Origin: Branchiostoma lanceolatum
Lineage: Eukaryota; Chordata; Leptocardii; Amphioxiformes; Branchiostomatidae
DNA length: 64,000 nt
Assembly: GCF_035083965.1 (NCBI RefSeq)
Contig: NC_089722.1
Coordinates: 27,798,642-27,862,641, forward strand
Direction: 5' to 3'
The notes beneath the pieces were generated by a model, which worked only from the letters and a program-made list of their open reading frames with translations, did not search any database and was not told the origin of the DNA. Each line of letters begins with the position of its first letter. Within the stretch, counting starts at the first letter, position 1. The translations under genes and the position numbers were made by a program. Positions 4,559 through 50,700 of this stretch are shown in pieces.

Positions 4559-7500
4559 TTAAGAGTAGTAGCAGTAGTGAATCCGGTGGTTCCTGCCGCC
4601 GTTACCGTACGGATAGGCGCCGTAGTACCCGTTAGCGTTGTCATCGTCTTCATCATCCCACCTGAACCACTCATCACGGACTGACATGTCTGCTACCTTT
4701 GGGAAACATGAGGGCATAGAACGGTCAAACAAGTAGCACACTTGCTGTTTCTTTTACACTCTCATAATACAAACAACATGACATCCCTTGATAGAGACGG
4801 GGGACGCCATAGACTTTCTGCAACTTATAATCCACTGCTCACCGGGCGAGGCACGTGTTTCATCTGCATATCAAACTGACGTCATAGTAGCAGTGGATTG
4901 TTTAGTCCTCGAAAAAGACTGGTGTTATTCAAACGAAAATTTGTATGACTCAATTTTCCCTTCTTAGACATTGATGACACAAAATCAGTTTCATCTTTGC
5001 CTAAAGTTCTGCACACTTATGCGTATTGCCAGATATACTTTCCAATTTTCCTATCTTATTCTTCCAACCACTACTAGATCAACTATAACTTTTTTTATTG
5101 CATTCATGCTAAGATAGCATTGATATTTCTAAACAAATTATGTTTTCATTAATTTGAACATTTTATTGTAAACTTACCCTTTGACATCCAGCTCTAAAGC
5201 GGAAGAGATAGAAGGGTCTGCGGCTGGGCAGGACGATGGGCGTGGTTGCGCTCCCGTCGCCACGGCAACAGTACTGGATCTCCGTGTTCCTGTTGTATAT
5301 CCCGTCAGGCAACACGCCGCTTGCGTGGTTCTGATTGTCGTCATCTTCGTCATCCCACTTCAGTTTGCCCCACTGGAAACCTTGGGAAAAAAAGAAGATG
5401 GTCGACACATGACGTCACAAACCGTTTTTCCACCAGCAAGTGTTGAACTAAGACACAAAATAATCGTTTTTCTTCGTGGTGCTCTCATGCAGCCTATGGT
5501 ATGGACAACATCACACATAACATAAAAATATCATTTGTCATATAGGGAAGGGATCCCTCTCAAATGTTTGAACTTTTTGATGTCGTATTGTTAGTATGAA
5601 CTGATCTAGATCTCTTCCGAAAGATACATGGACTCGTGTTTCATTTTTTTCTGATATGGAATATACATGACAGTACAACACTCACCAGCTGGGCAGTTTC
5701 CCTTCTTGAAGATACAGTAGTTACCGGCTGGCCAGTTCCCTTCTCCCATGCTGGCTTCAGTCTGAAAAATATATTTTCGTTGATATATTGTATCAAGATA
5801 TGGCTGTCGCAAATTTTAGATATGACAATAGCTATACAATTTTTTGTAAACTGTAATCAAAAGATTATGCATCACCCAAACAAAAGGAGGAAACTATTTT
5901 AATAGTTTTCTAAAAAACAAGATGGCCGACCTATGACGTCACAAAACAACATGGCGACGCCCACTGACCCAAGGGTAAAGCAACCTTCACCTTCATGCAA
6001 AACTTTTGATCCATGTTCCCTCCGTATCCGCCGTCGAAGTGAATCCCGCTGCTCCATTGGTTACTGTTGTCGTCATCTTCGGTGTCGTGGTGACGTAATC
6101 CGTCGCGCCACCTAGCGTTCGCAGCTACAGGGCAGCCGGTGTTGGTCCTGGGGAGACCGTAAGAACCCCTGGGCCACTCTAATAAAGAAATAGAGCAAAA
6201 TACAACAAGATGGTTCATTATATGTAGATGAAATATTCTAAATATTAGATGTATTGATATATAAAAATCGGATATACCTAAAGAAAAAAGATACTAGGCT
6301 ACATTTGGAACGTGTACATCCTCAAAACAAGGTCGACCCTCAGTCGGCCCATGACGTCACAAATCAATTAACACGGGTGACCTCAATACGAAACTGCCAA
6401 AACATACAAAGTGGTTGAACACACGGTGCTATCAGTGCAGTGGACTAGCCCCCTGATGTAGTATCAGTTGTTCCAAAGAAACTTCTTGGGCTAAGGAAAG
6501 TCAAACGATGATTGCATGGGCGCCCTGTGCACCATATAGTGTGTAAAGGAGTTTTGTGTTCGGCTCACCTTTAGTGTAGGGCAGCAGGAAAACTCTCTGT
6601 TCCTCGATCCTGGTGTTTGCTGTGTCGATGACGTCAGCCACCTCCTGTAGGCTCCTGTTCTTGATGTTGAGTGACGTCACCCAGGCGGCGTACCCTGCCA
6701 CCTGGATCGAGAACGTGAAATCTAGGAACTGGCGAACCTGCAAATAATGCAGAGAAAAAAATTTAATCTGTGACAGAATCTTAATCTTAGTGTAGATAAA
6801 AGCAATATTCAAAATTATTCTCAAATTGCCAGTAACAGTGCTATGTAGATATAGAAAGACAATTCAAACTCTACAACTGGATAAAATTCGGAGATCTAAT
6901 TCCGGCCGTTTCGAGTGACATCCATCACTCTTCTTCAGCGTCACTAAAAAGTGTTTTGTAGAGTTATAGTGTAACATATAGTCAGACCTATATGGAAATA
7001 ACTTACATAACCTGCGTATTGGAAGCCTATATGACACTACCGATTACACTGCCTACTTAATAATAACTTGTAAGCTAATAGCAGAGGTATTCTATATTCA
7101 GCATAATATAATTCCTCACCTTGGGCCAGTATTGGTCCGACTGCCCATCCAGCGTGCTCTCGTACAGAACGAAGAGCGAGTTTCGACCGAAGAGTCCGGA
7201 AGATCCGATGATCATTTCATGAAGATTGTGTAGAACCTATATTTGTGAAAAGAAGTGTGTTGTATTGATAACTTGTCCCCCATGGAAATATACTTATTGG
7301 ATGGCCGACACATGACGTCACTGAAACCAACATGGCGGAGCCCACTTCCTTAAAGGAAGGTAAAGCAGTTTTATCCCCCGAAAATCAAACAAAATGGGTG
7401 TCACCACATGGTGGGCTCTGGTTTGAATACAATTTTGTAAACCAGTTGTATTCTGGTAGATTAGTCCCCTATGATGTGCATTTTGCATGTAGTTCGCTAT

Positions 7501-8255
7501 ATCTTATACTATCTAGTTAAACCCAATCGTAAAAAAATCTTACCTGTCCTGCTCCATCGTCGTCCAGTGAGAGGACAGCATCGGCCCACTCGTTCGCCAG
7601 GTTGGTAGGTACCAGCTCCCCGTTGCTACCCGGACTCAAACGTCTGTCCAAGAAGTCCAGGAAATATTCCAACCTCTGAAATAACAAGCCCCAAATCATG
7701 AAAATCCATTCATCCTGGCTTCTTTGAGTCATCCTGTTTCAAAGGTTGTAACAAAAAGACGTCTGTAGTTCAAAGAAAAACCGTTTGGAGGCCAATATTG
7801 ATATCAGACACAAGCTAACAACACCTCTCCCTTTCCATATCCTTGTACATCCTTTAAAAAAGAAAGAAAGTAATGATAAATAAAGGTGTCTATACCTGAA
7901 TGTCATTGCCGTAGAGAACAGCGCCCTCTAGCCACTGCTGCCCGAACCGCAGTTGGCCGATGGCGCGCTGGAGTGCGTCGACCTTCCTGTCAAGGACGTC
8001 CAGTTTCCGCTGGATGTCTCGGAGAGCTTCGAGCTGGTCTTGCTCCAGCTGCTGCGATTTGCGCCGCCCGTACTCCTCTATCCCCTGCTGCAGTAAATTC
8101 ACCGCTATGGGGATGACTACTGCGAGGATGGACCTCCTGTTTCTGGGCCGACTCACCTCTTGGTCAGACTCAGAGGCCTTCAGCTCGGCCGGAGCGGACT
8201 GAGTTTGGCATATTATCGATAGAATGAAGACTCCGGCGAGCGGAGCGAATTTCAT
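4559..8255 (-). CDS. Secreted ApeC-domain protein with helical N-terminal half
   Basis: Eight coding exons, all with GT-AG introns and matching phases: 8255-7896, 7675-7544, 7236-7120, 6737-6569, 6178-5991, 5761-5686, 5380-5178, 4696-4559; 460 aa. Residues 1-21 look like a signal peptide. A furin-type RNRR|S at 38-42 precedes a hydrophobic stretch (43-54). Residues about 65-258 are predicted mostly helical, with a heptad region near 65-105. Residues 261-460 match the apextrin C-terminal (ApeC) domain: WPRGSYGLP start, three acidic (D)DEDDDN/TEDDDN motifs, LPDGIYN, YCCR and a final YCYY, with eight cysteines in all. ApeC proteins are invertebrate secreted or intracellular molecules; those studied in amphioxus bind bacterial cell-wall material. 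The domain call is strong. The role of this architecture is inference: extracellular microbe recognition or membrane interaction. I do not recognise the N-terminal half as a named family. Confidence 0.88.
6907..6938 (-). repeat. Hammerhead-like motif of a Penelope-type repeat
   Basis: On the minus strand the sequence reads CTGAAGAAG, a 5-bp stem closed by a short loop, then CGAAACG. This is the CTGANGA...GAAA arrangement of hammerhead ribozymes widely spread by Penelope-like retroelements. It sits in the intron between coding exons 3 and 4 of the ApeC gene, on the transcribed strand. The flanking ACTGGATAAAATT recurs at 16180, so this is a dispersed repeat. Self-cleavage is not shown. Confidence 0.4.
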
Positions 8256-8501
8256 GGTGAATCCTTTCACGTTCCTTTCTGTATAACAAAGGAAAAGATA
8301 ACAGAAAAGTTAGTAATTATCGGCTTGAGAAGGGAATATGACTGTCAGGGGCTTTTTTGTAACGATTAAATGATTCATCATTTGATGTTTTCAGATTGTA
8401 TGTCAATTCTGATTGTACAGTTTTGTTATGGCTGGGAACTTTGATAAGAATCCATTTACAATTGAAACTGCTATACAATAAGAAAATAGCCACAGACGCC
8501 C

Positions 8502-13594: not shown

Positions 13595-16500
13595 ATGCGC
13601 ATCCTGGCTGTTGTTATGGCTGCTGTTAACGTTCTAGTAGCGGTCAGGAGCGGGAGGGCGTCGGACGATGTTACCGGCGAGTCGTCAGGGCAGGCCACCG
13701 GCGCGTGGACGTACTGGGGAGAGACGAGAGGGAACAGACTTTACAGTAGCGAGTCGGAACACAGCTGCGGGTACATGATCGTGGTGCCGCGGGAGGAGTC
13801 GCAGACATGCCCGAGCGTCGCGCCCGAGTGGCACGGTGTCTGGTCACGAGACGAGCCCGATAATACTAAGCCGTTAGTGGAAAGTAAAGGTCGGGAACAG
13901 CGTGAAGTACAAATGTTCGTCGCCGACGACGAAGCGTTAGAACACGGGGTTATAGAACACAGGCGAAGGCACTCCGGACGGCACGGCCGACATCACGACT
14001 ACAACGACCGTAGACGAGAACAGCCGAACATCGACGAAGACTTTTCCGACGTCGATGACAGTGACGTCGATGACAGTGACGTCGATGACAGTGACGATGA
14101 GGACAGTGACGATGAGGACAGTGAAGCTGATCAATTGCATCCTTCGGCTCACGAATACGAAGAAAACAAGCACGTGTTTTCTGGCAGTGGAGAAAGCGAG
14201 CGGATAGATTCGCGTCGGAATGAAGATGTCGTTGATAGTCTAAGGCAAGAACGCCAACTTCGTGTGAACCGGACTTTGCGTGTTCTCATCTTAGAAAACG
14301 AACTCCTCAAGGAGAGAATCCACGCAAAAGCTTTAGAGATGCAGTTACTAGACGGGAGACTACAGGCGGAGTTTCACCGGGACGAGAAGCATATCCCGAC
14401 GGGTGAACAAGGGGATGGCTCCCGAGCGGGAAGGTGGGAAAGATACGCTGGTCCACAGGAGGCCCGCGGTCGGACCAAGAAAGGTACGTGATGTCAGTCA
14501 TCTTATGTCTTCTCCAAGCAGATATTGAAAGGACAAACCCTGGGGTTTCTGACTTAAAAGATTTATCGCTAATTTCATTGTTGTAGATCTGAAAACAGGG
14601 CTGTCAGAAACGTTACGGCCTGCCCTTTAGAGCCTACAACTTACCCTTTCTATCTGTGAAGACGTTAAGCCGGTCGCGCTGTGTAGACTGCATTTGTTCT
14701 TTCGGATGGGGATGTAAAGCCGGTCGCCTCGTGCATGGTAGCCTGGAATCCAAACCTATTATAGCTCGGAGATGAGACTCGGGTGGAGACTCGGGAGCTA
14801 TGATAGGTTTGGATTCCAGGCTACGTGCATGGGGGATCGAGATTCAGGCCATTCATATACGATCCATTTTTTTCTATGCAATAATACTTTTTTTTTCAAT
14901 GCCATTGACGTATGTTGGAGGGCCACGCCCACTTTTAGGAAAAATGCGACGCCTCTTGCAAAAATACAAAATAAGATTTATGATTGACATGTATCATAGT
15001 AATTAGTAAGTGACAGTTGAACGTCCTGCGAGCCAAACACAATAAGCTCAAAATTGATAAACGCACATATATGTGCATGGTATAAAACGTGTAAAGAAAA
15101 CATCGCTGCCGTTGATATTTTGTCATACGCTAATATAAGAAAATGAAAATGAATTTTGCTGGCGCAGTTTAGAGATAATTTTAGTAAGCTCATAGCCGCA
15201 ACAAGAAGGCTATGAACCTGATTGGTTTGAATATGTGTCCATTCGGAGTGGTGGCCAGAGCAGGACTATAGTTATCGTCAGCTGCACTTCGTCCGAAGGA
15301 AGTTATTTTAAGTTCCAAGCATAAATATTTACAGCACTCTGCAACATGTCACCTGTAAACTGTTTAGTGTTCGGTACAGACGGATCAATTAACGCGCCGG
15401 GGGAATCGGGCGAAAGGAAGCCATCTTTCAACACCACACCAAACACTGATTAGGATTCTTGTGTTTTCTACAAATTAGACACGTTTTTCTGTTTACGTTT
15501 CGATAAGTTGGCATACATGTACATTCTGTGTATCAGTTTAGCAGTACACACCAAGTTATGATAAGGAATGAAATATGTAGGTCGCCGTTATATCTCCTTT
15601 TAGACCCTTTTAGGCTGAAGCGTCGACCGTAGAGCTTGACCAAAAAGCTCATTAGTAGTTCAAACGGAGTTTAGTGATGAAGAAGTGTACTTTGTAAGTT
15701 TTGTGTGCTCTGTTGTTTTTCAAGTGATACTTTAACATTTAGGGTTACATCTAATGTATACTATAAGGTCATAGGTCATACAAATCAATTTTGGTCCCCC
15801 AACGGTTGTTCAACGGTCTCCATACAATGGGAAAGTGGCCATCTTATGAAAATTGTCTGTCATCACGTACGAATACTTACTGGAGATGGGTTATGGGGTC
15901 GAACAGTTTCTGGTAACAATTTAAGAATTTCTACGCACCAGTAGCAAATGAAGTTGAGACTGCTTCCGTTGTGAAGATACTTTGACTGTTTTATATTACT
16001 CTGGCACGGAAGGTGTCAGTACGAAATGACATTGGAAAGGATCCCAGATTGTCGATTTTCTAAAGGCAGGTGGTGTACATATATATCCGTCGAGGAAGTT
16101 GGTAATGAGTTCTGAATTCGTCTTGAATCAAATTTGATGGAAAAAATATTATGTATATACGCCAAAAATAGTTACTCAAGCAACTGGATAAAATTTTGAA
16201 ACAGTCAGACGTTTCAGACAGCATCCGCTACCTCTCGTCAGTGACTAAAGAAAGATCTGGCAGAACTAGGTTTGACCTAGTTGCTATGCTGTCTGAAACG
16301 TCTGACTGTTTCAAAATTTTTATCTAGTTGCTTGAGTAACTATTTTTGGCGTATCTTATTACCTGGATCCATGGATGTCTAACATACATCAACGTATTAT
16401 GTATATACCTTACTGTAGAGCGACTAGGGCAAGCCCAGGCGGAATCTTCCTTTACAGACAGCAGATTACAAGCAGATGGGTGAAATTGTTGTAATAATCA

Positions 16501-19500
16501 CTAGCCAGCTGACATCTTGCGGCTTGTTTTTGTAAGAAAACGGAATGTTCTAAACTAAGGGCCTTGTCACGCGAAGAGTCTATTGAACTAGAATGGCCTG
16601 TATAGATTCGTCAGGTACATGTGTGATATGAATATGACGGAGGAAGGGCCACAGCAAGACTTTAGCTTTGTCTGTTTGTCTAAGACGCCACAGTTAAAAG
16701 TCATATCTTGAAAATATTTTTTCAACCTTCAAATAACGAAAATACTGTTATTGAAAATTTAAGAATATATATATACAGTCATCCGCATCCATAGTGACCA
16801 CTCAAGGGACTGGAAGATATGGACACAGTGGACAGGTGGTCATTTCAGACAGGGACAATGGGTAGATGAAAATCTAAGGAGCCACCAAAAATGACAATGG
16901 CCAGATGGTCTTAAAATCGGTGTCACCCTGTCAATGACCTTCGGCCGAGTATCAAAATCGTTTGGCGAGATGCTTGCCTGTTGTTTCACGCCGGTTCAAA
17001 GGGTTGCTGTTCTTTTTCAGTTTTAAGTACCCTTTAGTTGGGAATGTATGCGTTGTTGCGGTATCTTGTACCACTAGACAGGGACACGTTGCCGCTTTGT
17101 ACTTTGACTTTCGTCCTAAACCCGTGTCTATAATTTTCTCCAGACGTATGTTTTAACGTTCTGTGCGGATCACAAGCCTTTGATGTTGTCCTTAAGTCGG
17201 CAGTGACCCGGCATGTATGTGGTTAACATTCACTTACTAATAGGTCCCCTTTCCACCGTGGATAGAGACGGCAGAGCGACCACATTTGGATTAATTGTGT
17301 GATCTATCACATTGGATATGATGTAAAAGTATGTTTTGAAAGACAACAACACAAAACGCACAAACTACACATCTTGAAGAATTGAGTTCGTTTGAACAAG
17401 GAAGTTATCACTATATCCTCCTTGGTTTGAATTACTAATGCTATTTTGGTCGCTCAAATGTCGCCGCCCCAATATGATAGAAAGGTGGTATTACTGTTTT
17501 TTTTTCGAGCAACCTCATTGGAAAGATAGTAGACTGTACGAGCAAGTCTTATATTTCACAGAGAGCTTCGATAACTCTACCTTTGAAGTTTTAAAGGTTA
17601 ATGTTCCGCCTAGGCTTAAACCAATCATTATCAAGATTTGCGCTAATGACGTTATAATGAAAACCTTTCAACTTCCAAAAGTGATAGTATGCCTTGTCCT
17701 GGTGTTTGTAAAGACATATATTACCCACACAGCCGATTACTGTGTTTGTATAAGGATAACTGTAACCTATTGTTTGTACACACTCCCTTCTAATCCTGTC
17801 CTGTACAGTCAACCTTCATCATATCATCAACTCTTGTCTTTTTCGCGACGCTTCAGGGGCGAATGCATTTTTTATCGGTGCCACCAAATACCTGCGATGG
17901 TGAAATTAGTTGTATCGAAATAATCTAGAACTCATAGTGCAATTCTTTAGCGGAAACAGTAAAGCGACGTACTTTCCAGGCCGTTTGGAACCCTCTTTCC
18001 ATATATAACGATCACCCATTTCCAATGCCAATATATATGTCACAGTAGAGATGGCGATTCAGGACAATCGGCGATTGTCCTAGGACAGATCGCGATCGCC
18101 GTTTGTCCTAGGACAGACTGCGATCGCGATCTGTCCTTGGACAATCGCCGATTCTACTAGTAGAGATGGCGATCGCAATCTGTCCTAGGACAAACGGCGA
18201 TTCTACTTGAACAAATTCTGCGATCGCGATTTGTCCTAGGACAATCGCCGATTCTACTAGTAGAGATTGCGATCGCAATCTGTCCTAGGACAAATGGCGA
18301 TTCTACTTGAACAAATTCTGATTATATGGAAATGCTTTGGAAAATAGAATAAATCATTGCATTACATTTCAATCATGTTTAACATGCTACCTACATTTCA
18401 CAATTATTAACTATTTCAGGTGAATTAGTTCATATTTCATGATGGATAAATTTCATGTGAGTATGTTTTCTGATAAAGTAATTTCTGCTAAAGCCGAGTG
18501 ACAAAATTTTAATAACGTGTGAAAGATATCAGTTGGAAGACGGTGATCCAACAATGTTTCGAAGGAAAATTTTGAGGTGTCAACATAATACTGTGCTCAG
18601 TTTCACACCTATTGAATTCACAACCTTAGGAGAACAATAACAATTGTAAAGTGATAAAACAGGTGTCAAAATATCAATCTCAGTTTCAAGATACTACAGT
18701 TTCACACCTATATCATTTCACAGTCAGACATATACTGAATGATTTTACAACTTAGGCAGAACAATAAAAATTAGAGGGTGATCAAACATTTTTGCTGTAT
18801 ATTGCTGTTTCCTTTATCTTAGCATCAATTGAGTTTGTAAATACTAAATCAGAGTTTGTAAATATTAAATAAAATCATGGTTTATAAAAAAATATTGCTG
18901 TTTCCGTAATATCTTAGCATCATTAAGTTTGGATCGCCGTTTGTCCTAGGACAGATTGCGATCGCAATCTCTACTAGTAGAATCGGCGATTGTCCTAGGA
19001 CAGATCGCGATCGCAGTCTGTCCTAGGACAAACGGCGATCGCGATCTGTCCTAGGACAATCGCCGATTGTCCTGAATCGCCATCTCTACTGTGACATATA
19101 TATGTGCGTAACGCATTATATACATGCCTGTCCTCCTCTATATCGAACTTTCTCTCAATGGATAAAAGGACCAACTATATCTATATACATACGGTAATCT
19201 CCGCATTGTAGATATAGGACAGTGTAGAAGAAACTTAAAAGGTATTTAGTTTCATCCGATACTACACAGATCCTTTGTAGTGTAAATTCTTTAAAAATAC
19301 TTCAAAAGTCATTAAAAGTAAGAGTATTTGTCATGCGTTGTATCTATCTAAGACCATTGTTGAGCAGTAATGTTCTGAAGTATTATAAAGCGTCAGGCTT
19401 TAGTCTTAGGCGTCACACCTCTGTACGTAAAAGAACCCAGCGCACTTATCGAAGTGACTCGGTGCGTTTGGCTGAAATAGCCAGCTGTAGCGATGCCACA

Positions 19501-22500
19501 TTGTACTTCTACTAACTTTACAAAAACAAGACATCGTACTTCACCTCTTTTGAGGATGGCTGCGCGCTTTACCTTTGTATCATAATTGATGGTTTTGTAT
19601 CCCATTATGTACATGCACGATTCATCCCCGTCCAGCTTGTCAGATGCTGTTAGTGTTATCAGTAACAGAGTAGCTGTTGACATGCCGACACTGGGCGGGT
19701 GGAGCAGTGATAACAGGGGCCAGATGCACGACCCCTCCCCCTCTCAGTTAGAATCACTCCCTCTCCTGATTGTATGTGGCTCTCCCCCAAACGTGTGCGT
19801 TCTATCACCCCAAATATAGCATCTCAACAGAAGGGCAAAGTTCCTACACAAGGCGAAGCAAGCTCTCTTACTCCCTCTTCTCGGGTGACCCCTATTAGCC
19901 TTGAACATTCCCTCTCACAATCCCATCCACCCGAAAGCTTCCTGGCCCCGGCCCTATCAAAGAACCTGTTACAAATACTTCAGACGGGTACTTGATAGGA
20001 CAACGGTTATCTGGAACCCTGGGCACATACACCAAAGCGGCTTCGCGGCCCCTGGTCCAACTAAATATCCCCAAGGAAAGTTTACCTCAGTCTCCTTGGG
20101 GATGATTTCAGGCAGGGAAAATCAACGCAGGGTATGCGTTAGTTGGCCAGGCGGGGATAGAAACTTACAGTACCGAGGAAACCCAGCCTGTAGCCCTTGG
20201 AGAAACTGGTGACTGGGGTTGGAGCAATGGGCACTGGACAAATATGGATTGATGCAGGCTATATGGAACCCATACCTCAGAGATAGTACATTAGTTCACT
20301 TCTGGCAGACAAAACACCCAAAAAGAGACTTCTGTACGTCTTCAAATCTAAACCAGTTCTAGTATTCTTATCCACATCTTCCTCGGCAAATAGCAAGATA
20401 CAGGTTCCTAGCCACGGAAGGCTACAAGCAAAGAACCGATAGTCTAGACTCAGCCAGGAGTTTAAGAAATACTATATCTATTGTACAGACTCAAACAGAG
20501 TAGCCTGACTGGTCGACTATGAATGTAGTCTATGTCTGTTCATTGTCATGATAAGGACCCGTTATATTGAGGGTCAAGGGCAACGCTAGACTACGACACG
20601 AACCCTTCAAATAGGAAGGACACTCCAGAACCTTGACTGTTTAATCTAATTACTATCAAATTCCGCGGATCAATTATCCAGGGGCCAGAGGTTCGAACCC
20701 CAGCTCAGGCGTTGTGAGGGTTGCTTTCTTTGTTTCGGATTGGGACGTAAAGCCGGCGGCCCCGTATAGGGAAGATATTCAGATGGTAACCTTGGGCGTC
20801 AAACCTCTGCTCGTAAAAGAACCCAACACACTTATCGGGAAGAGTAGGGATGACCCGGTGTGCTGAAAACGCGAGCCATAGCGTACCCTCATTAATTACC
20901 TCAGATATCGAAAAATCATCACGCTTCGTCTAAAGCATTGCGAGAGAACTAGACTATCAACTCCCATGTGTTTCCAATCCTTTGATGACGCGCGGGACCT
21001 ATCAAGTCAGACAGGACGCACACGAGTGGTCCATTTCCCTACAACAAGGATCCCACACCCGCAAACATGGCGGCTAACCCGGAACAGACAACCACCTGCG
21101 GAGCGCTGACCCCAGACAGATGACTTCGTGGAATTGAAAAGTCAGGACAAAATATACGCTGGCAGAATATCACATTCCGGTAAAGAAACTTAACTAGATT
21201 TCTGAGGAGGTGACCCCCTCTCTACTCTCCAAGCAGAGGAGTGGTTCTGGCAGGTTTTTGACGTGTTTGTAGGCGTTTTTGTCGGACTTTCTACTTTGTC
21301 CTTTTTTTTCTCTATAAACCTGCCGGAACCCATCCCCTGCTTGGAGAGTATCCCCTCTCTTCATTTGAGAAGGTTGTTTTCTTGAACGGCTGTTGGCCAT
21401 CTAAGGAAATCGTTAGCCTGACGGCTATTGATTTGTATTACAACTAAACCTACTGGGCCCTACAGTTCACATAATACATAATACGTTGGCTGTTTTGTGA
21501 CGGAGATGTCGAAATTCTAGAGAAAATCTGATTATCTTATTCCTTGTTTTTGTTCTTCTCTTCTCAAAGGGTTCATTCTCACATATTGGCGAACACAAGA
21601 ACCCTCAGCGCGTATTGGTAGCCAGGTCAACCCCTTCAAGCTTTCTTAGAAATATCAAGGACGTCATAGCCACATGAAAGACAACTGTAAGGTCTTTATT
21701 AGCTATAGGTCGTCAGAATCTTTCGGCAAGGATGATTTCTTCCCTTTCCGTTTTTAGTATCTTTACCCCCATTGCTGCCTTGGGGACTGAATCAGCTGCA
21801 AGAAGATATCGGTTCGACCCGGTTGGGGCTTGATTTGGTGTTTTTTGTGGCCTTTTCTGCGTTTCTGCGTCTAAGCTTTGTAGAGGGAGGCCAGACGAAC
21901 AGAACTGTAACGTTAGAGACAGAAACACAGAGACACGGAGCTAGAAAATTGCAACAAAAGACACAAAACAAGCGCGACAGACATATCTTCCTTGCGAGTA
22001 GGGTCGTGTATTTCGGGGATTTCTCACGGCACTCGGCAGACTGCCTGATTATAGCATGTCAAGCGATAAAAAATGGTCCTTCGCGTTCCTCCATTTACAA
22101 AGGCGCCCTCTTGAAGATCGCCGACCTGTGATTAAGGTGTTTTTTTTTCAAATATTTCTTTCTTATCAATTGTGTTCATCTGACATGATACAACATGTGT
22201 CATTGTATGTAATAAAATCGACAATCAAGTACTTGTTTTTACGATGAAATATTGAAAGGAAAGACGTTAAAACGAGACAATTGTGCGTAGAATTACCTTT
22301 GGAATGAGACAGTTAAATGAAGAAGGCAAAAGACAGGAAAGAGTTCTAGAAAATGAAGAAACTAAACATTGGAGAGATCTAGGGACGACAAGGGGTGGAA
22401 AACAAAAAAGTTAAAGAAAGAGACAAGAAGGTCGGGAAAATGAGAGGAATGGGAATGAAAGAAAAGAAGAAAGACGTCCAAGATGGATACGTCTAAAGGT

Positions 22501-25500
22501 CCTTTTTGTCCCCACAGTACGCAGGCATCTGTTGCTCGGTTGTACCGTCCCGACCGGAGAGAATCCATCCGCCCGGCTCTCTCTGTCAGCTGTGCCTCTT
22601 CTCAAACACCCTCCTTTGTCATACTGCCCGGCTTAGGTCAATAGTTTTGCCCGCAGTTTGCGGACAATTTCACCATGTAATGGCCGAGCAACGACCCTGG
22701 TGAATACAGCTGATTATACACGGGGTGTTCCCGGTGCCAGGCGCACTGTTATGTACAGACAGGAACTGCCTAAGCCCTTTCAGGAATGAATGATGCTGTC
22801 AAAGTGAAGGGTTATTGTTGGGGTCCAAGGGCCGTCTGTCACAGGTTACAAACACGGGCTGCTACAGGAGAATGGGTCTGTTATGTATCGAAGTCAAGGG
22901 GACAAGACAAGTAGCTTCTCAACTTGTAAAGGCGTTTTTCTTGTCGGTCTGTCGGCTGTGTATTTCTCTGTATCCTCAGAGTCCTCTTAATTGTAGTACT
23001 CAGTAGTAGGAGGTATGGTTTTGCGTGGTATTATGAAGAAAGTTAGAGGAAATTGAATAACAAGAAGACTGTAGCAGTTATACGTGAAACTTTAATAGGG
23101 AACGGGCGAGACGTTTCTCTCGTGAAAAATCTTTGTGTAGTATATTTATAACGTATATTATTATCAGATCGTGAAAGATAAAATCATTATAATTTAGAGG
23201 AAATATCATGACATGAAATCGTAAAAGAACAATCATAGATTCCATCAAGGATTCCAATAAATACTGCAGAAAATTTTGTCGGTTTTGGCGGGAAAATTCT
23301 GATAATGCATTCATATTATTCCTCGCGTGTTATCTGATAGTATCGGATACAACATCGACAGTAGCGCCAGTATTTATATTGTATCAGTGAAGGGACTCAA
23401 CGGAGGCCGTACTGTTTTTTTCCAAAGATTCTCTTTTTCTACTTAAAATACTTGTTAATTCATTGTAAATAGTTGAGTTGATACTTTGAAGGGTTTAACA
23501 TACTATCGTGGAATTAGGGGATACTTCAACGATGCTATGATTTCCAGTAGTGCTTTGTACGTTATCTATGTTATCGCTAAAGATTAGCGCCAAGGATATC
23601 TCTCCAATCTTCTTCCTGTGCGCCCTTGTGAAACACTTTGCTGACTCCTTTGTGACAGAAAATGTATCGGGCGTGAAGAGAAGTTAACACGATTCTCAAG
23701 GGTCGCGAGGAATCGGCGACCCGCAAAAATGAACCGCCAAAAATTTACAGGTAGAACAACAATTTTGAAAACAGGTGCAACCGTTTATTTAAACCCTTTC
23801 AAAGACGATTTCAAACCCCCAGATAGATCTAATTGTAGTAACTACGTTGGAAAGTATCGAAATACATAAATAGGGATATGGTATCATCTTGTGAAAAAGA
23901 AGGACCCACTATTGCATCAGTGATGACAAGCATGTCGCTAACTCCGGACCTAAACTCTCGGTTCCAGGGTCATGAGTCTGATTATCCTGGGGCAGAGATG
24001 TAATTGATAGGTGAAAGTAATAATCTACCGGTGGCAAAAAACTATTGTCGTCTATTATTACACATGATGAGGAACAGTGGGGGGAAACGTGACGACTTGA
24101 ACCACGGGAGTTAGTTTGTCAATGTTTCTTTGCTCAACGCACCGCAACGGAATGTTGGATCCAAACCTGCGGCTAGTGTTACCCACAAGTTACTCTTCGC
24201 CAACTCAAGCTTTATATTGTCTTCCAGAATTATAATTTGGAGACGACATAGTTTGAGACTTAAGTCACGAAACGAACAGCTGTAACGGCTTCAAAGCGTA
24301 TAATTATCCCCATACCGGAATCTAAAATCTCCTTGCTTTCTTTCTGACCTCGGCCCAATGTCACAAAGTCGACAGATAGTTTGTAACCCGCGCACGCAAA
24401 TGTCACGCTATTTATTTGCAGTTGAATATTTTCTTTACAGAAAGTTCAGGAAATCTTTTGCTAAGAGTGTTGAGGGCCTATTACTGTAAACCAGATTTAA
24501 CAACATGTATCAAATTCCGCAGGATTCCTTTCTTCTCCATTGGGGAAATAATAAGGCCACCCTGTGTATAAGCCGAAGGACAAAAGACAGTCATTACGTT
24601 GGAATCTTCCCTGTAATTGCGAGAGGACGGGGCGTCTGTTTTTCGTATAACACTGGAGTGACGTTTTTCCCTTGTCGGAAGCGGTAATAGTAAGACTTGT
24701 TAACACACCTGTGAAGAAGGTGTATGCACAACAGGGTTCCGGGACGGTACAGTAATGTTAGAGGATCCCTTATACATCAGGGTCGTTCCTTTGAAAATTA
24801 TGGAGGGGTTGGGGCGATTATGTATTTTTTTTTACTTATCTGATTATTTTATCTATTGATTTGTATCAGGCAAGTGGACACTATCACTTGAACAGGCACT
24901 ATTACAAAAATAGGTTATGCTAATAAACTAAAACGAAGTGTTTATAAGCTGTATATACACATACAATATGACATAGGCCGAATTCACACCATGCCCTACA
25001 ACATCGACCATGGCTAAACATTCCTATTTGATATGTATACACAAGGTATATATATAAAAGGGAGAGAGGGAATAAAGAAATGTTATACCCACCCCTTCTC
25101 GATCTAAAAATGGAATCGGCCCGAGATAAGAACAAGATAAACACATTGTTGACGGATGTAGCGAAGTGTCAGTATTTCTCACGGGAAAGGTAGGCAGGAA
25201 GAGCTTATAGCTTCAGTTCGAATTCTTTTCTAATAATAACTAAAACCAAGGAGGTCTCCATATAACCGCCTTGCTACGACATTCTGTGAAACATGTAGAC
25301 GTAACGTAAGGCTTTCCTGACGTTATTAGCTTCACCTATATAGCAGAAAAATTAATACAAGAATCAAACAACCTAAAAATGAATGAGAAAGAACTGACAA
25401 AAAAATAATATTTTGCTTAATATAACGTTAACCAGGGATGTGTAAGAAATATTTATTACTATATTGATGTAACTGATGTGACAATAATATGACCACTTCA

Positions 25501-28500
25501 TCAGCTAAAAAGTCGAAAATTCCATGTACAGATATTCAAGTCGAGGTACTCGTAACCCAAGCAACTTAAGTTAACGGGGGGTGCCCAACCATCGGACGTT
25601 TTTTTACGCGCTGGAACTCACGGCGCTCCATTGCTGGTTGCCAGAGAGTGGTCAGGTTTTAATGAATGAATTTTGAACACATTCATCTAAAGACCATACT
25701 TGGACAAGAAATGTATTCATACTGTTCATGGGCCTTTCATGCTCCGCGTTACATGCGAAAGACGCTGTGAGACATTTTCACGAATGTACCTTCTGATTTA
25801 GTGCTACGCCAGATAGTGTGCCTAACTTAGTACGCTTTGGTAATTTTGCTCTCTTCGGAAGTTGGTGATGAAGTTAGGGAAATGTAAATAAGGCTTGAAG
25901 TCTGCTATATTCTAGGTTTCTTTTGACCGGAAAATTTTGACTGTGTGCACTTCTAACGTCATGTGAGAAGGGCTATATCTAGCGCATCCCAGCTCATGTT
26001 CCCACGGGAAATAGGCTACTACGCGGCCCGACGTACGTATTGAATGCGGCCCGACTTACGAAATCATTACGAAAAAATGACACCGCTTACATCAACAATA
26101 CTCCGTCTACTTATTGGGAAACATCTTCGCCATCTCTGTATTCAGTTTCCTTTTCATAGACGGTACCAATCACATGTTAGAGCGTAACAAAACTGTGCGT
26201 TGAATCGTCCCGCCACCATCGCGGCCCCAAAAAATGGCGGGAAAACAACGTCGTCAGACGACAGCAATGTTTACGTTGTTTTTCTTTGGTCGGTTTTCTT
26301 CTCAACAAACACTTAAAGACCCAAATTTTAAGTGTTTTATGAAATTATTTTTCTTATGTGTATGATAGCTGTGTGACTTATGTATCTGCTTGGCACATGT
26401 CGTATATTTAGGTGCCGGGCCGTCTAGCTACGCAGTGACCCTCTACTCAGCGTTGCCATCATTATTGTCAAAATACTACTTTTCGACAAAACAAGAAATA
26501 AATATATACACATATGTTTTGAATGTAAATAACAATTATGTGCATGAACTTGGGTTATTTACCTTCCTTATCAGCATAGTCATTGGACACAAACACGGCG
26601 TACTTATGCAAAATAAGATCAGTAAAAAATCCGTGCGATGTTCGGGCGCGTGCGAGGTTCGGGCGGCCCCCGTTATATCATAATCTAAATGACATTTTAT
26701 TTTACCCATAGAACCGTTGTGGCAGAAGGACACTGTTGGCGTACTGTGGACCGGGGCCAAGGCAGAGCGACTCAGCAACACCATCTTTCGACAGCGGGCG
26801 GAAATACAGGCTAAACAGTCGAAGATCTCAAAACAACAGGAGAAGTTGTCCAACATGATACAGGAGGCTGTGACGCAGGCGCAGTTACTGGCCCACAGTG
26901 ACGTGTGTAATGAGTGCACCAATACCGAGTACTGTCACATCATGCGTGATGACGCGGCCTGCGTGCCGTGCAGCGTATGTCCCAAGGGTTACGTCACCAA
27001 ATCACGGTGCACACAAACGGCTGACGTCATTTGCAGAGGTAAGATTATAAGGGACGCGTGTTTAATAAGTTTTAGTTTCAAAGACAGCAAGCGTTTGCGT
27101 CAAGACACAAAAGTATAGAATTCGTTAATACATAAACTTTCACAGTTGGATTGGTTTTTCTTCTACAAAAGAAATCACATATATCCAAACTATTAAAACA
27201 CCTTTAGTTGTTCGCCAAACATCATATATCTGCTCGGACATTATGTTCTTATGTTTGAATTCGTATATGATATGTGCATGGACATATGGTGCCATGCTTT
27301 ATTCATACGTCATGTCAGACACATTTTTTTTCTATATTTCAGATGAAGATGAGTGCACGACCCGTCCCCCTGTCTGCCCGTCTCACACCATGTGTCTGAA
27401 CCTACCCGGTTCTTTCCTCTGTGTGGCGCCGATAAAATTGTGTCCTAGTGGAAACTTCTTCAACACACAGACTCAAACATGTCAAAGGTGATTATTCATT
27501 TGCAGGTACATGCCTGACGGCTTATTATAATCAAGCAAACAAAAGTAAACAAAATACTTTCTTCTTCATACGTTCCAGAGAGGCAAACTAAACACAGAAA
27601 GAAAAGCTCATTTCTACCTCAGCTATTGGAGGGTTTAAGGTCTTTTCTGTAGGCAGTTGAATACAAAATGTCCATCGTTTTTGTAGATAAACGGGCTGGA
27701 TGATTTTAGGATTTTTTTTACCTGTAAATTGGCAAGAATTGAAAAGCTTGGAGACATTTCAAAAACTTTATGTTAGAACCTGTTTCTTTCGAAATTATTA
27801 GTATATGAGAACATTGACAAATAAATGTTATTTCATATCACACTAACTTTCTTTCTCATGCTGCCCTTTATGTTTTTGTCGCTAGGTGTCGCCGCTGTGT
27901 GGGTGCCAGTGGACCGATCGTACCTTGCACCAGCACAACCGATGTCTTGTGTTCTCCGCCGGTACTCAGCCGGCTGTCTGCCACCTGGCAAGGCACGACA
28001 GAAATCCCTCCGCCCAGAATGCTCAGGCAAGTGTAAATTTAAGCCTAAGGCTATTGGCAGGATCATCCTGTCAGCAGTGGAAAAATCTGCATTGCTGGCA
28101 GGATCATCCTGTCAGCAGTGCAATTTTTCTACTACGGACAGGATCATCCTGTCAGTACTAGTAGCCACTTCCTAAATTTAACCATCATACGTACGTTTGG
28201 GTACTGTTACTTGTATCCAGCACGACCTGATAGTGTCTGAAAATTTGTTTCAATGATCTGTGAACGTCAGTTAATGCCACAACAAATGCAGAAAAAAGAA
28301 CAGGTTGTTGGTTTAACTTACAAAGATATACTGTTAACATCGCGTATCTGAATGATTTATCTGAATGATTTAAAATGCTCTATATCTAACACTGGAGCAC
28401 AAAGTCCAAGTGGACCCCATGATGATATACAAGTAGGCTCAATAAATGCGTGAAACTCAGTGACATTTGGTGTGTGGGGTGACAACTTTGCGGGTGATAC

Positions 28501-30215
28501 TTGAATATTAACAAATAGTGCCCCAAAACACACCGAACTCTGTTGGTTGCGATTGCGAATAGAGCACTTTCAAAGACACTGTATTTTCTTCTAATATTTA
28601 CTGTCCTTCTGTTCACTATGTAGGGAGGTTTCTTCAGGGCCTGCAGTCCAGCTGCGCATGCTCCCAAGTAACCATATCAACGACAGCTCTTTCTCGGAGC
28701 CACTGGAGAAGACCATGGTGCAGACGGGGGAGAGCGGGTTCGTCTGGGCCGACTACACCTACCCGCTGCCCTACCCCTGCAAGGGACACATGGAACTGTC
28801 CCTCCAGCTGGGCGGAACCTACTTCCAATCCACCTGGTTACACGTCGGAAGAGCGGTTCCACGGGAGGGATCGACCAGACGTGTGAGCGGGGAGGCCCAG
28901 GAGGGGGCGTCCATTACTGCTGCGGGGAGGGTAGGCGCCGGTGCACCGATATCACTCAGGCTTCGGGACCGCCACGGCCTCTGTCCTCCCGTGATGCTCA
29001 GGCGACAGGCCATGTACCTTCGAGGGCGGAACGACAGGGAGATGACGTCATTCGAAGCGCCCTTGACGTCATCAAGTGTTCTATGGCTCGCTCATGCCAC
29101 CGGCGCCGTCCTACTAACCGCACGGGCGAAAGAACTCGTTCAACGGACGGGGAAAACGGAATGGCGCCTTGAATTCAAACTCACAACAGTTTCTGATTCT
29201 TACCTACTGAAAGTCGTTTACGGAGACGTGGCCGTATCGGTTGGCGGGAATGTGAAGCTATCTTTCACCCAAGCGGTATACCTGCGCGGGACTTGTCTAA
29301 ACGCGGGAATTTCAGTCTCCATCATGATCAGAAGAGACAAACAGGATATAGTCGCCGATAAACAATTTGTAGGAGGGATTCGGGGGGAATACATGTCTAT
29401 TCAGGTCCAATCCCACTTTCCCATACAGACTTCTGACAGGATATTTGTGGTCGTCCAAGCCGCAAAACGTTGTGATGTACACTTTTACAGCGCTATGCAC
29501 GGACTAAGCGCACTTAACGTGTTATGGATCCCCCATAAACACTCCTCCGTGCTGAAAGCACAGTTAGAACACGCCCGTGTCCTGGCAGGACTAGCCCAGT
29601 CTACTAGATTGAGATTTGCGGAGCAGATCAACACGCGACCACGGGACGTGACACTGTTACCAGACGGGGTGCTCAGTTTCCACTCCGCCGGGAGAGTGAG
29701 CATGGAATGCCATCTGAGAATGCTGCACTCTTGTGATTATGCTGCTATAACTGTCTTCTATAGGGTAAGACTTTCATTGCATACTTATACCTGCAGGATG
29801 CCAACATCATCGATCATGACATATTCTATCCAATCAGTGCTATGCACATGTTAAAAAGTCTATGGGCGATCTTGAAATTGTATATATATATATATGAATA
29901 GCTGTTCATCGATATCAATTTGTACGCTCTGAAACTTAATTCTACATGTTATGCCGTCTATGAATTATTCTATTCTTTACATGTACGTTTACTCTACTCC
30001 ACACCACACAGGGACTTGCGATTCGCGACACCCAGCCCGTTTTGCGGCAGGTTCAGGGTAACACCCTGTCCCGTTGGGCGGGCATGACGGTGGCGGGAAC
30101 AGTTCCTGTGGAGTCCGGGTCCAAGATCCACTTCGAGCTGTCCTGCAAGCGTGGCCGTGTGAACGGTGTGGACAGGGAGTTCGCCGGGCTCTCTCTCGTC
30201 TGGCTGCCGCCTTGA
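13595..30215 (+). CDS. Secreted TNFR-repeat/EGF/TNF-C1q-like chimeric protein
   Basis: Six-exon model: 13595-14483, 26712-27038, 27343-27487, 27886-28026, 28624-29764, 30012-30215; all phases match; 948 aa. The upstream in-frame GTG at 13577 was rejected for the ATG that starts the signal peptide. Order: signal peptide (1-22), basic His/Arg patch, Asp/Ser repeat (about 150-180), coiled coil (about 215-260), second coiled coil (about 310-345), TNFR-type cysteine repeat (about 361-404), calcium-binding EGF beginning DEDEC (406-440), second TNFR-type repeat (439-478), then about 450 beta-rich residues. These end in repeated GLS..LWIP / GLSLVWLPP motifs, suggesting two or three TNF/C1q-like jelly rolls. 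Exons 2-6 form one gene with good confidence. Joining exon 1 across 12.2 kb rests on phase (G|AA) and the coiled-coil theme. The intron after exon 4 appears to be GC-AG. Function unknown; a secreted oligomeric binding protein is inferred. Confidence 0.65.
14739..14823. mobile_element. 85-bp MITE, TAGCCTGG family, nested in a SINE
   Basis: Terminal inverted repeats begin TAGCCTGGAATCCAAACC and are nearly perfect. They are flanked by an exact 9-bp target duplication CGTGCATGG (14730-14738 and 14824-14832). The duplicated bases belong to a SINE body (CGGATGGGGATGTAAAGCCGG upstream), so the insertion interrupted an older element. Confidence 0.85.
16163..16352. mobile_element. Inverted-repeat element with hammerhead-like arm
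   Basis: Arms of about 65-70 bp (GCCAAAAATAGTTACTCAAG inward) are inverted copies of each other. The direct repeat TATTATGTATATAC occurs just left of the left arm (16149) and again at about 16394, so the whole unit may be about 230 bp. The left arm, read on the minus strand, contains CTGACGAG, a 7-bp stem with GGAT loop, then GAAAC at 16210-16241, related to the motif at 6907-6938. Confidence 0.6.
18031..19103. mobile_element. 1.07-kb inverted-repeat element built of short palindromes
   Basis: The ends are inverted copies starting ATATATATGTCACAGTAGAG. About 270 bp of the left arm and about 170 bp of the right are made of alternating palindromes, TGTCCTAGGACA (about nine exact copies) and GCGATCGC. 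The centre (18310-18930) is AT-rich, has a diverged internal duplication around TTTCACACCTAT, and shows no open frame. It is a non-autonomous transposon; target duplication cannot be fixed because the ends lie in TA-rich sequence. Confidence 0.7.
19388..19505 (+). repeat. SINE 3' fragment
   Basis: It shares GGCGTCA.ACCTCTG...CGTAAAAGAACCCA.C.CACTTATCG with the copy at 20795-20850. This is the tail of the same SINE family whose middle (GTAAAGCCGG) is seen at 14700 and 20745. Confidence 0.6.
20680..20890 (+). repeat. tRNA-derived SINE, longer copy
   Basis: It begins with a B-box-like GGTTCGAACCCC and continues through TTTCGGATTGGGACGTAAAG and the GTAAAAGAACCCA tail to GGTGTGCTGAAAAC. It is the longest of three related copies in this intron. 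No A-box end is clear, so it is 5'-truncated or diverged. Confidence 0.65.
21223..21350. mobile_element. Foldback MITE, TACTCTCC family (copy 2)
   Basis: Ends TACTCTCCAAGCAGAGGAG and its inverted copy GGAGAGTA, with the same GGCGTTTTTGTCGGACTTTC core as 8502-8673. It lacks part of the right arm's inner sequence, so it is a shorter deletion copy. Confidence 0.75.
28055..28158. repeat. Three hairpin-forming repeats in intron 4
   Basis: Three copies of CAGGATCATCCTGTCAG, spaced about 41 bp apart. The middle one lies inside a longer palindrome (GAAAAAT...GCATTGCTGGCAGGATCATCCTGTCAGCAGTGC...AATTTTTC, quoted in parts). They begin 29 bp downstream of the proposed GC donor of the TNFR-like gene's intron 4. 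Confidence 0.7.
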
Positions 30216-47795: not shown

Positions 47796-50700
47796 CTACT
47801 TCTTCCCTTTCTTTCCCTTCTTGCCCTTGCCTTTGCCCTTGGTCTTCTGCTTGAGCATCTTGCGGACCTTGTAGGATCTCCAGAAGGCCTGGACCACTGT
47901 GGCAGCTCGGATGGCCATCTCGAGCTCTCTTTCTTCTTGTTCCTGTCAAGCAAAAGTGGTACCAATATTAGATACAGTAAATTCATTTAAGTTCACTGTT
48001 GAAATGATACAACATGTACATGTAGTAGAAACACAGTGACTAACAGCACAGCATGGATATTTACTGTGATGAGTTTGCAGTGAGGACTTAGAACCACATA
48101 CATGTATCTACCAGTAGATTAGTCCAAATTCTGTTAAAGTTACAAACCTTTTTCTCTGCTGCTATCCTCTTCTCTTCCATGATCTTCGTGTATTCAGCCT
48201 CCAGAGTCTTAAACTTTTCTTCCAGCTCGTTAAGTTGGGCCTTCTCCTCTGTATAAACAGCATCCACCTCTTCGTACTCGGTTTGTCGGTCGCCCATGTC
48301 TGCGTCATACTTCTGGATCCAGTTCTCTACTTCTGTCTCGATCTTGAACTTCCTCTGCGAGTAAGAAGTTTTATCTTTTAGCCAAACAGCCTAGGAACTC
48401 TATCTAGTCCATATCCCTGAGATATTTTCAAAACATCCTGAAATTTTTCAAACCATTTTGAAATTGTTAAAAAAAAATCTCAAGATTTTTCTGAAACTCC
48501 CAAGATGCTTAAAAAAATCTCAAGATGTTTTCAATAATCTCAAGATGTTAAAAGAATCTCAAGATGTTTTAAGAAATCTCAAGATGTTTTGAAAAATTTA
48601 GGATGTTTTGAAAATATTTTTCATAAAGCATATCAAGGACTCTTCCTGAGGGTTATCATAGTCTAGATCTGTCACTAGTGTGACCTACAATTCTTTTTCA
48701 AAATGTCAAAATCTTAACTTACGTGCATGCATGTCTAATCGTCGCAAGATGGGGAACAACAGACGATAAACCAGACATAAGTTCAATTTGTTAAAGGCTA
48801 CAATCATTGGTTCAAAGTACTCTTCTCAGTCTAAAATCAATCAGTTCAGTGTAAAGTACCTTTCTGAGAGCCAGCTCACTCTCCCTGTGCTCTGCTGTCA
48901 GGTTGGCCAGCTGCTGTTTCAGCTGGTTGATCTCCTGCTGAAGTTTGCCCTTCTTAGATTCCGAGTTGCGATTGTCGGCTTGTTCCTCCTTATCTGCGTC
49001 CATCTTGGTCCTGCGGATGTGGTCCTCCGAGAACTTCTCGATCGTGTGCAGCTGGTTTTTAAGCTTGCGAATGTGGTCATTTCTTTTGCTGATCTAATGG
49101 AAGAAATCATTAAAACTTAAACTTAAAGCGAGACTAACAGTGCTGCAAATTTTAGTCTCAACTATCATTGAGACTTTTCTGGTGCTTATTATTTCTAAGA
49201 AATTGATAATCAAATCTTACTCCGTGACCCCTCCCTCCTCCACTTCGACCTTGTTGAATAGTGGCCATGTGGCCGAATGAGCACTTCAAAGAAAAATAAA
49301 GGCCTTGGCTTGACCAACAGATTTCAAGAGTTTCAGCAAGATGTAGGGGAAGTTTGCATCGACTTTCCTTACTTGTGCCAACCCCTAACCCCCTTCCTAT
49401 AATAATCCCATTAGGTTTGACATTGATAGGTGCACACCTCCATGTCCCTCTCGTCCTCTGCCTCCTGTAGCTCTGCCTCCAGTTTCTCGATGACTTGTGC
49501 ATTTTTCCTGTCCCTGATGGTGATGCTATCCACATAGTCCGCCCGCTGTCTCTCCTCCAGCGGGGTCATCAACAGACGCTCCACGCAGATCTCCTTCAAT
49601 TCTGCTAGACCCTGTACAACACAAAAATAAGATCATTACATGCTCCTAACTGTAAGGAGTATCCAAGATCTAAGGTTAACGAAAACTTATAATTTTGCAG
49701 TTATCCAGGGCTGTTAAAAACATTACAAGCAGTATTACAGTCACAGTGAGTCACTCAAGAAAAAGTACTGTCACAGTAGCTTTTGTTATACAAAATAAGA
49801 ATGAGAATTGGAGTAAAGGGTTTGCGGAAAAAGCTGGGCTGTCTACCTGGCCTGGCTAGCTGGCCTGTCTACCTGGCCTGTCTACCACGTCAGGCTAGCA
49901 ACCCAGAAACTCAGAAGCTCAGAAACCCCCATTCATATCCCCACAAATTGTGAGGCCCCAGTGCAGTCGCGCCCCCTAGCGGAACGTTTCCAAAGCACAC
50001 CCGTTACGCTGGGCGCGGCACAGCACACGCCGATCGTCATTCGAAACCGCGATTTTCGTCCCCTCTTCTTGATTCCTACGAAGTTTACATGAATTGCTTC
50101 ATCGTCTGAAAACGAACCTGTTGTTCCCATCTCATGATTCTATCGCCCTTTGTTTATGTTATCCAAAGGAACTCTCGAACACTGCATTTAGCGAAGTCAC
50201 AGACGTCGCTGATCGCCATCTTACTTCACGTGACCATGTTCTTCAAGCTTGCTTCACTGGAGGGCGCTGTTTCAGAGTAGAGTAGAGTTGCCTCTGAATA
50301 CATCGTTGTTGACAGGTTGTATCAATATCTAACTTGGAGCCACCATTTTACGTCTCTTCCGGCTCCAGCGTAGACACCCTTCCCTAACCGGTGTCTCCCA
50401 GTTTACAGGGGCATCCCGGAATTGAGTATCAAACCCAACTTGTGTGAATCTCAATGCGTAAGTTGTGGGACAGGGTGAAGTTGCGAACACAACGATACTA
50501 ACAGTTTAGATAAACAAAGGAACCATGTGTCTTACGGTTGGGCCGGCTGTAGGCGGGACGCGGACCGGAATATGTAACGTTCATACCACGTGGCTGTCGG
50601 CGGACGTTGACAGACTAAAAATTCATACATTTCCGGTTCATGTTTACCGTCTGCTTTGAAACAAGGCTATCTAAACAAACTATCTTAACACAAATACCCA

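What the first reader, a model, noticed from the sequence alone, without database searches (positions are those of the whole stretch)
13595..30215. A secreted protein joining TNF-receptor cysteine repeats, EGF and TNF/C1q-like modules
Seen: two C..C..C...C patterns of TNFR type flank a DEDEC calcium-binding EGF, followed by about 450 beta-rich residues with repeated GLS..LWIP/GLSLVWLPP endings. Known: TNFR repeats bind TNF jelly rolls, and ligand and receptor modules are normally on separate proteins. Inference: one polypeptide holds receptor-type and ligand-type folds behind coiled coils, possibly a self-assembling or decoy immune molecule. I know no named family with this order.
Basis: partly seen in the sequence, partly recalled or inferred. 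Interest (0 to 1): 0.8.

Follow-up and report, generated by a model that had tools for sequence, protein, structure and literature searches.

The report
Amphioxus secreted TNFR–EGF coiled-coil protein
An uncharacterised amphioxus gene encodes a probably secreted coiled-coil protein carrying two TNF-receptor cysteine repeats around a calcium-binding EGF module and ending in a well-conserved beta-rich region that matched no known family by sequence; calling that end TNF/C1q-like is possible but not proven.

Summary
The gene is real. Six exons with consistent phases (window 13595-30215, +) encode 948 residues. Three uncharacterised Branchiostoma proteins match it (88-94% over residues 360-950), two of them lacking one segment each. 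Pfam confirms TNFR_c6, EGF_CA, TNFR_c6 in that order; the EGF and second TNFR matches overlap and share two cysteines.

The TNF/C1q claim for the C-terminal half is only weakly supported. Pfam, PDB sequences and hhalign give nothing significant, and no relative outside Branchiostoma was found. AlphaFold gave pLDDT 31 for orthologue P0001 and 49 for module 2, a beta-sandwich-like model whose Foldseek matches mix TNF ligands, carbohydrate-binding modules and others, none at E 0.001 or better. Module 3 alone resembles C1q about as much as TNF does in my own test.

The C-terminal exons are strongly conserved (last exon 98.5%) and no paralogue was found, so a decoy immune receptor is not favoured. 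Likeliest: a multivalent secreted ligand or matrix protein built like angiopoietins or multimerins.

The parts
13595..14483 (+). Exon 1: start codon, hydrophobic N-terminus (probable signal peptide), Cys motif, acidic stretch, first helical region
   Evidence: ATG, donor AAAG|gtacgt; tblastn to P0001 1-286 at 77%
13766..13810 (+). N-terminal motif CGYMIVVPREESQTC (residues 58-72), resembling the start of angiopoietins (comparison recalled)
   Evidence: 7 of 3000 shuffles reach the score vs a recalled ANG1 peptide, 24 of 3000 vs ANG2, 118 of 3000 vs myocilin; present in all 4 proteins with 3 of 15 positions varying
14030..14194 (+). Acidic stretch (26 D/E of 55 residues), partly a 15-bp tandem repeat, variable between the proteins
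   Evidence: TRF 14048-14124
14228..14380 (+). Probable coiled coil 1 (residues about 212-262)
   Evidence: AlphaFold helix P0001 202-255 at low confidence; own heptad scan 0.50 here, barely above 0.475 in the C-terminal half
26712..27038 (+). Exon 2: probable coiled coil 2 (about 26738-26896) and first TNFR repeat (26915-27034)
   Evidence: Splice sites; TNFR_c6 31.5 bits; AlphaFold helix P0001 295-347 at low confidence; heptad scan 0.65
27343..27487 (+). Exon 3: calcium-binding EGF module DEDEC...; its last two cysteines are also Cys1-Cys2 of the second TNFR repeat
   Evidence: EGF_CA 34.4 bits over residues 406-452, TNFR_c6 from residue 439, overlapping; splice sites
27886..28026 (+). Exon 4: remaining four Cys of the second TNFR repeat; 141 nt, phase 2-2, so skipping keeps frame; GC-AG donor (alternative GT donor at 28032)
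   Evidence: P0003 (B. floridae) lacks exactly this exon
28624..29764 (+). Exon 5: beta-rich module 1 (28625-29092), module 2 (29096-29533), helix linker (about 29534-29605), first half of module 3; module borders set by eye
   Evidence: Splice sites; 93.4, 93.4 and 96.1% identity to P0001-P0003; secondary structure
30012..30215 (+). Exon 6: second half of module 3, ending FAGLSLVWLPP, stop
   Evidence: Splice sites; 98.5% identity to P0001-P0003; C1q glocal score of module 3

Best explanation
A secreted, apparently single-copy amphioxus protein that assembles into oligomers through an N-terminal cysteine motif and two coiled coils. It carries a TNFR-cbEGF-TNFR cysteine stalk and displays clusters of a C-terminal beta-sandwich head of about three modules. 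The head, multiplied by oligomerisation, would bind a cell-surface or matrix partner, as in angiopoietins (fibrinogen heads) and multimerins/EMILINs (C1q heads). Shown: gene structure, TNFR/EGF/TNFR order, strong conservation. Inferred: secretion (hydrophobic N-terminus, no other membrane span), oligomerisation, head function, and jelly-roll nature of the head (most likely for modules 2 and 3).
For: Consistent six-exon model, three related proteins. TNFR_c6 and EGF_CA matches. Only the N-terminus reaches a membrane-like hydropathy (1.84 at residue 1; best elsewhere 1.34 at residue 421). Helices in both coiled-coil regions (low confidence). Angiopoietin-like N-terminal motif (comparison peptides recalled). 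Conservation by exon: exon 1 81-84%, exon 2 95-96%, exon 3 79-92%, exon 4 96% (2 proteins), exon 5 93-96%, exon 6 98.5%. Module 2 modelled as strand-rich, pTM 0.51. Module 3 vs C1q: z 3.17, 10 of 3000 shuffles; a TNF chain on the same profile z 3.07; 78 natural control segments, highest z 2.9.
Confidence: 0.5

Rival explanations
1. One reading: TNFR-type receptor modules and TNF/C1q-type ligand modules in one chain, so that the protein can self-assemble or act as a decoy by receptor-ligand contacts within the oligomer.
For: TNFR repeats confirmed; module 3 as C1q-like as TNF is in one test; CD40L, FasL and TNF chains in 6 of the 50 Foldseek rows shown for module 2 (ranks 1, 4, 15, 33, 41, 42; 7sgm, 5l36 and 7kp9 are grouped with CD40 ligand, FasL and TNF).
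Against: No sequence-level TNF or C1q match. Foldseek hits not significant (none with E at or below 0.001; TM about 0.3, rmsd about 9-11) and mixed with enzymes and carbohydrate-binding modules. Only two TNFR repeats, interrupted by EGF. High conservation and no paralogue found do not suggest a decoy.
Confidence: 0.17
2. An extracellular-matrix or basement-membrane structural protein in which TNFR and EGF modules are mere spacers and the beta-rich head is a carbohydrate- or matrix-binding sandwich unrelated to C1q/TNF.
Confidence: 0.25
3. A mis-joined gene model: the cysteine-rich part and the beta-rich part belong to different genes.
For: 12.2-kb first intron; two of three public models drop one segment each (P0002 lacks about residues 93-198, P0003 lacks exon 4). 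P0001 and P0002 are 99% identical, so not fully independent. No transcript evidence was available here.
Against: All internal phases fit, and all three models join exon 1, exon 2, exon 3 and exons 5-6 in the same order.
Confidence: 0.05

Closest known systems
Branchiostoma relatives: LOC144915524 (P0001), Bbelb_173340 (P0002), C3Z9B3 (P0003)
   Same: Same protein and same order of modules
   Different: P0002 lacks the acidic segment, P0003 lacks the second TNFR half; none is characterised: the sources' names are 'uncharacterized protein', 'hypothetical protein' and 'TNFR-Cys domain-containing protein'
Angiopoietins
   Same: N-terminal superclustering region, then coiled coil, then a C-terminal binding head; clustering controls signalling (PMC8261516, passages seen). 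Cysteine motif similarity from recalled peptides
   Different: Head is fibrinogen-like in angiopoietins, no such Pfam match here; angiopoietins have no TNFR or EGF (recalled)
Multimerin/EMILIN family
   Same: Coiled-coil oligomers, multimerin-1 with an EGF-like domain and a C-terminal gC1q head (PMC8881648, passages seen)
   Different: No EMI domain and no Pfam C1q here; no TNFR repeats in the family domains listed in those passages
TNF receptor superfamily
   Same: Two TNFR_c6 cysteine repeats
   Different: No membrane span, no death domain match; EGF inserted between repeats; large beta-rich C-terminus
Amphioxus TNFR hybrid genes (TNFR-caspase)
   Same: Amphioxus domain shuffling involving TNFR repeats (PMC2575513, passages seen)
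   Different: The one described there is a predicted membrane protein with an intracellular caspase

Membership tests
TNF receptor superfamily | TNFR cysteine-rich repeats (PF00020) | tested here: met
   39.3 bits vs 29.4, two stretches; single repeats 31.5 and 28.5 bits
TNF receptor superfamily | Membrane span and cytoplasmic signalling part (absent only in soluble members) | tested here: not met
   Kyte-Doolittle 19-residue maximum outside the N-terminus is 1.34; no Pfam death domain
Calcium-binding EGF | PF07645 match | tested here: met
   28.4 bits vs 27 in the window protein and 29.5 in P0003, but below cut-off in P0001 (24.9) and P0002 (20.2)
Calcium-binding EGF | Six cysteines of its own with the usual CxC between cysteines 4 and 5 (recalled) | tested here: inconclusive
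   Six residues lie between cysteines 4 and 5 (C432, C439), and cysteines 5-6 (C439, C452) also belong to the TNFR_c6 match
C1q-domain proteins (PF00386) / TNF ligands (PF00229) | Pfam C1q or TNF match in the C-terminal part | tested here: not met
   No family at E up to 10 for pieces of exon 5, exon 5 whole, exon 6, or modules 2+3 of three proteins
C1q-domain proteins (PF00386) / TNF ligands (PF00229) | Jelly-roll fold with C1q/TNF topology | tested here: inconclusive
   Module 2 model pLDDT 48.6; mixed, not significant hits; module 3 vs C1q z 3.17, other five module-profile pairs no signal
EMILIN/multimerin | N-terminal EMI domain and C-terminal gC1q | tested here: not met
   Neither in Pfam scans
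Angiopoietins | N-terminal cysteine motif before a coiled coil | tested here: inconclusive
   Motif present; comparison made with recalled peptides only
Angiopoietins | C-terminal fibrinogen-like domain | tested here: not met
   No Pfam match
Secreted coiled-coil oligomers | Actual oligomerisation and secretion | not testable with these tools
   Sequence features only

The most novel reading that the evidence does not exclude
A cephalochordate-specific chain that unites TNF-receptor repeats, in an EGF/TNFR hybrid knot sharing one disulphide, with two or three highly diverged C1q/TNF-type jelly rolls behind coiled coils: receptor and ligand folds in one self-assembling secreted molecule, conserved within Branchiostoma but unrecognisable at sequence level as a C1q or TNF family member.
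Probability: 0.25. Interest if true: 0.65.

Novelty: new variant of a known kind. Interest (0 to 1): 0.42.

Why it matters
If the head is C1q/TNF-like, receptor and ligand folds of one signalling system would sit in one secreted chordate protein, which could be tested for self-contact and would bear on how TNF/C1q and TNFR modules were combined. If it is not, a strongly conserved beta-rich region with no recognised relative still needs a name. In both cases it is an uncharacterised and constrained amphioxus gene with an unusual domain order.

Tried and rejected
Whole-protein AlphaFold was run on P0001, not on the window protein (3-row alignment): pLDDT 31.3, no usable fold. Module 2 AlphaFold (window piece, 4 rows): pLDDT 48.6, only a coarse strand-rich model. 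Foldseek: 0 of 1220 matches with E at or below 0.001. VIA-align second look: no TNF/C1q rows among the 50 shown; by that tool's note this excludes nothing. hhalign of modules 1-3 with C1q, TNF and mixed profiles: in each of 9 comparisons at least 6 of 60 shuffles reached the score. hhalign between modules: Prob at most 1.7%, best P 0.029 over 9 columns. Glocal PSSM test (own script): one search tried 12 module-profile pairs (full profiles, and profiles without their first 30 columns) with 200 shuffles each. Module 3 vs C1q gave 0 of 200 in both forms, module 2 vs the shortened C1q profile 14 of 200, and the others at least 24 of 200. One search repeated the 6 full-profile pairs with more shuffles; one of six stands out. 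The profiles were chosen after seeing the sequence and each includes a consensus recalled from memory. Module-to-module alignments: 2 vs 3 global 5 and local 12 of 1000 shuffles; 1 vs 3 global 10 but local 206 of 1000; 1 vs 2 global 73 and local 108 of 1000. Heptad scan: coiled coil 1 0.50 and coiled coil 2 0.65 against 0.475 in the C-terminal half. N-terminal motif: my regular expression was loosened to fit, occurs in 1 of 20000 shuffles, and does not match the recalled myocilin peptide. No relatives beyond Branchiostoma: three database searches, each scoring only the roughly 8000 candidates sharing most words, with length limits (about 160-510 aa). N-terminal pieces and coiled-coil pieces: no Pfam match above cut-off. 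Paper searches for this order or these names showed no description among the listed titles and abstract starts (one search listed 20 of 36 papers, 12 of 45). PMC11788884 on domain shuffling: passages seen, about vertebrates and cyclostomes. PMC2493400, on amphioxus immune genes, is not held. No second copy in the window.
Full report
What is there. The window comes from a Branchiostoma: its protein matches P0001 (B. floridae x B. belcheri LOC144915524, 938 aa), P0002 (B. belcheri Bbelb_173340, 843 aa) and P0003 (B. floridae C3Z9B3, 888 aa) at 90-92% over the full alignment and 88-94% over residues 360-950. These were the only hits in three protein searches: 3 proteins, the same 3, none, where the length limit excludes these three. 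P0001 is 99% identical to P0002, so the three stand for two lineages. The species of the window is probably neither B. floridae nor B. belcheri (inference from the identities).

Gene model. Exons 13595-14483, 26712-27038, 27343-27487, 27886-28026, 28624-29764, 30012-30215. Residue numbers below follow that 950-aa model; after exon 4 subtract 2 for the 948-aa form. tblastn with P0001 recovers every exon in order. Two of three public models leave out one segment each: P0002 the acidic stretch, P0003 exon 4. Exon 4 is 141 nt and phase 2-2, so it could be a cassette exon or an annotation miss; nothing here decides.

N-terminal half. Hydrophobic start (hydropathy 1.84, the only membrane-like stretch), then CGYMIVVPREESQTC, an acidic stretch (26 of 55 D/E), and two helical regions (P0001 202-255 and 295-347, low confidence). 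My heptad scan gives 0.50 and 0.65 for them against 0.475 in the C-terminal half, so the second is the better coiled-coil candidate. The cysteine motif resembles the start of angiopoietin-1 and -2 (7 and 24 of 3000 shuffles reach the score), less so myocilin (118 of 3000); the comparison peptides are recalled, not fetched. In angiopoietins this region is the superclustering domain in front of the coiled coil (PMC8261516, passages seen). No Pfam match above cut-off for exon 1.

Cysteine-rich part. TNFR_c6 at residues 365-404, EGF_CA at 406-452, TNFR_c6 at 439-476. The EGF and second TNFR matches overlap by 14 residues: C439 and C452 serve as EGF cysteines 5-6 and as TNFR cysteines 1-2, giving ten cysteines for what would be twelve. 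Exon 3 encodes all six EGF cysteines and exon 4 the other four TNFR cysteines. The gap of six residues between EGF cysteines 4 and 5 is wider than the usual one (recalled), so a shortened four-cysteine EGF in front of a complete TNFR repeat is the alternative. That the two modules share one disulphide is my inference from matches and spacing. P0001 and P0002 keep all ten cysteines.

C-terminal half. Residues 503-950 have no Pfam family at E up to 10, no significant PDB sequence and no hit outside Branchiostoma. I divide it by eye into three modules, each ending in a hydrophobic LW strand and each with two or three cysteines (positions): module 1 about 504-659, module 2 about 661-806, a helix, module 3 about 831-950. 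Modules 2 and 3 align better than most shuffles (global 5 and local 12 of 1000), modules 1 and 3 only globally (10 of 1000; local 206 of 1000), modules 1 and 2 not (global 73, local 108 of 1000). Against 78 E. coli segments, modules 1 and 2 never exceed z 3, but one segment reaches z 4.1 with module 3; of 297 control pairs 2 reach z 3.3. The repeat reading stays tentative.

What it does. Conservation is uneven (gapped positions left out): exon 1 81-84%, exon 2 95-96%, exon 3 79-92%, exon 4 96% (P0003 lacks it), exon 5 93-96%, exon 6 98.5%. A decoy or pathogen-recognition molecule would be expected to change fast and to duplicate; amphioxus is said to have 50 C1q-domain genes (PMC5519582, passage seen), yet no paralogue of this one appeared in my limited searches. 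The order - cysteine motif, coiled coils, cysteine-rich stalk, beta-rich head - fits a multivalent secreted ligand or matrix protein of the angiopoietin or multimerin style (multimerin-1: EMI, EGF-like, coiled coil, gC1q; PMC8881648, passages seen). It is a member of neither: no fibrinogen, EMI or C1q match. Amphioxus is known to shuffle TNFR repeats into new proteins (TNFR-caspase; PMC2575513, passages seen), and 10 TNFRs, 4 with death domain, were counted in B. floridae (PMC4979521, passages seen); I could not see whether this gene was among them.

Verdict. The ligand-fold half remains a hypothesis with weak positive evidence in one of three modules. A new variant of a known kind, of moderate interest.

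Noticed in passing
window 5934-8309, minus strand: Neighbouring gene with an apextrin C-terminal domain (ApeC, PF16977, E 1.9e-18 within the ORF 5934-6293); an ORF with a hydrophobic start and, by eye, coiled-coil-like heptads at 7893-8309 (no Pfam match) may be its first exon.
   Followed up: partly
window 27886-28026: Exon 4 has a GC-AG donor and is a phase 2-2, 141-nt exon absent from the B. floridae model: candidate cassette exon that would convert the TNFR/EGF hybrid into a plain EGF.
   Followed up: partly
window 18067-18320 and 18933-19067: Two arrays of related 28/49/100-bp repeats containing TGTCCTAGGACA inside the 12-kb first intron, in opposite orientation as judged from their translations.
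   Followed up: no
window 59146-59508, plus strand: Weak ion-channel match (Ion_trans, E 0.0027, 17.4 bits, below cut-off 25) suggesting an exon of a channel gene.
   Followed up: no
window 48815-49093, minus strand: ORF with sub-threshold matches to coiled-coil and spectrin-like models, perhaps an exon of a coiled-coil gene.
   Followed up: no
window 49817-50089 (+) and 53291-53611 (-): Nearly identical translated stretches (VCGKS.AVYLAWLAGLSTWPVYHVRLATQK...) in opposite orientation: an inverted pair about 3.2 kb apart, possibly the ends of a mobile element.
   Followed up: no
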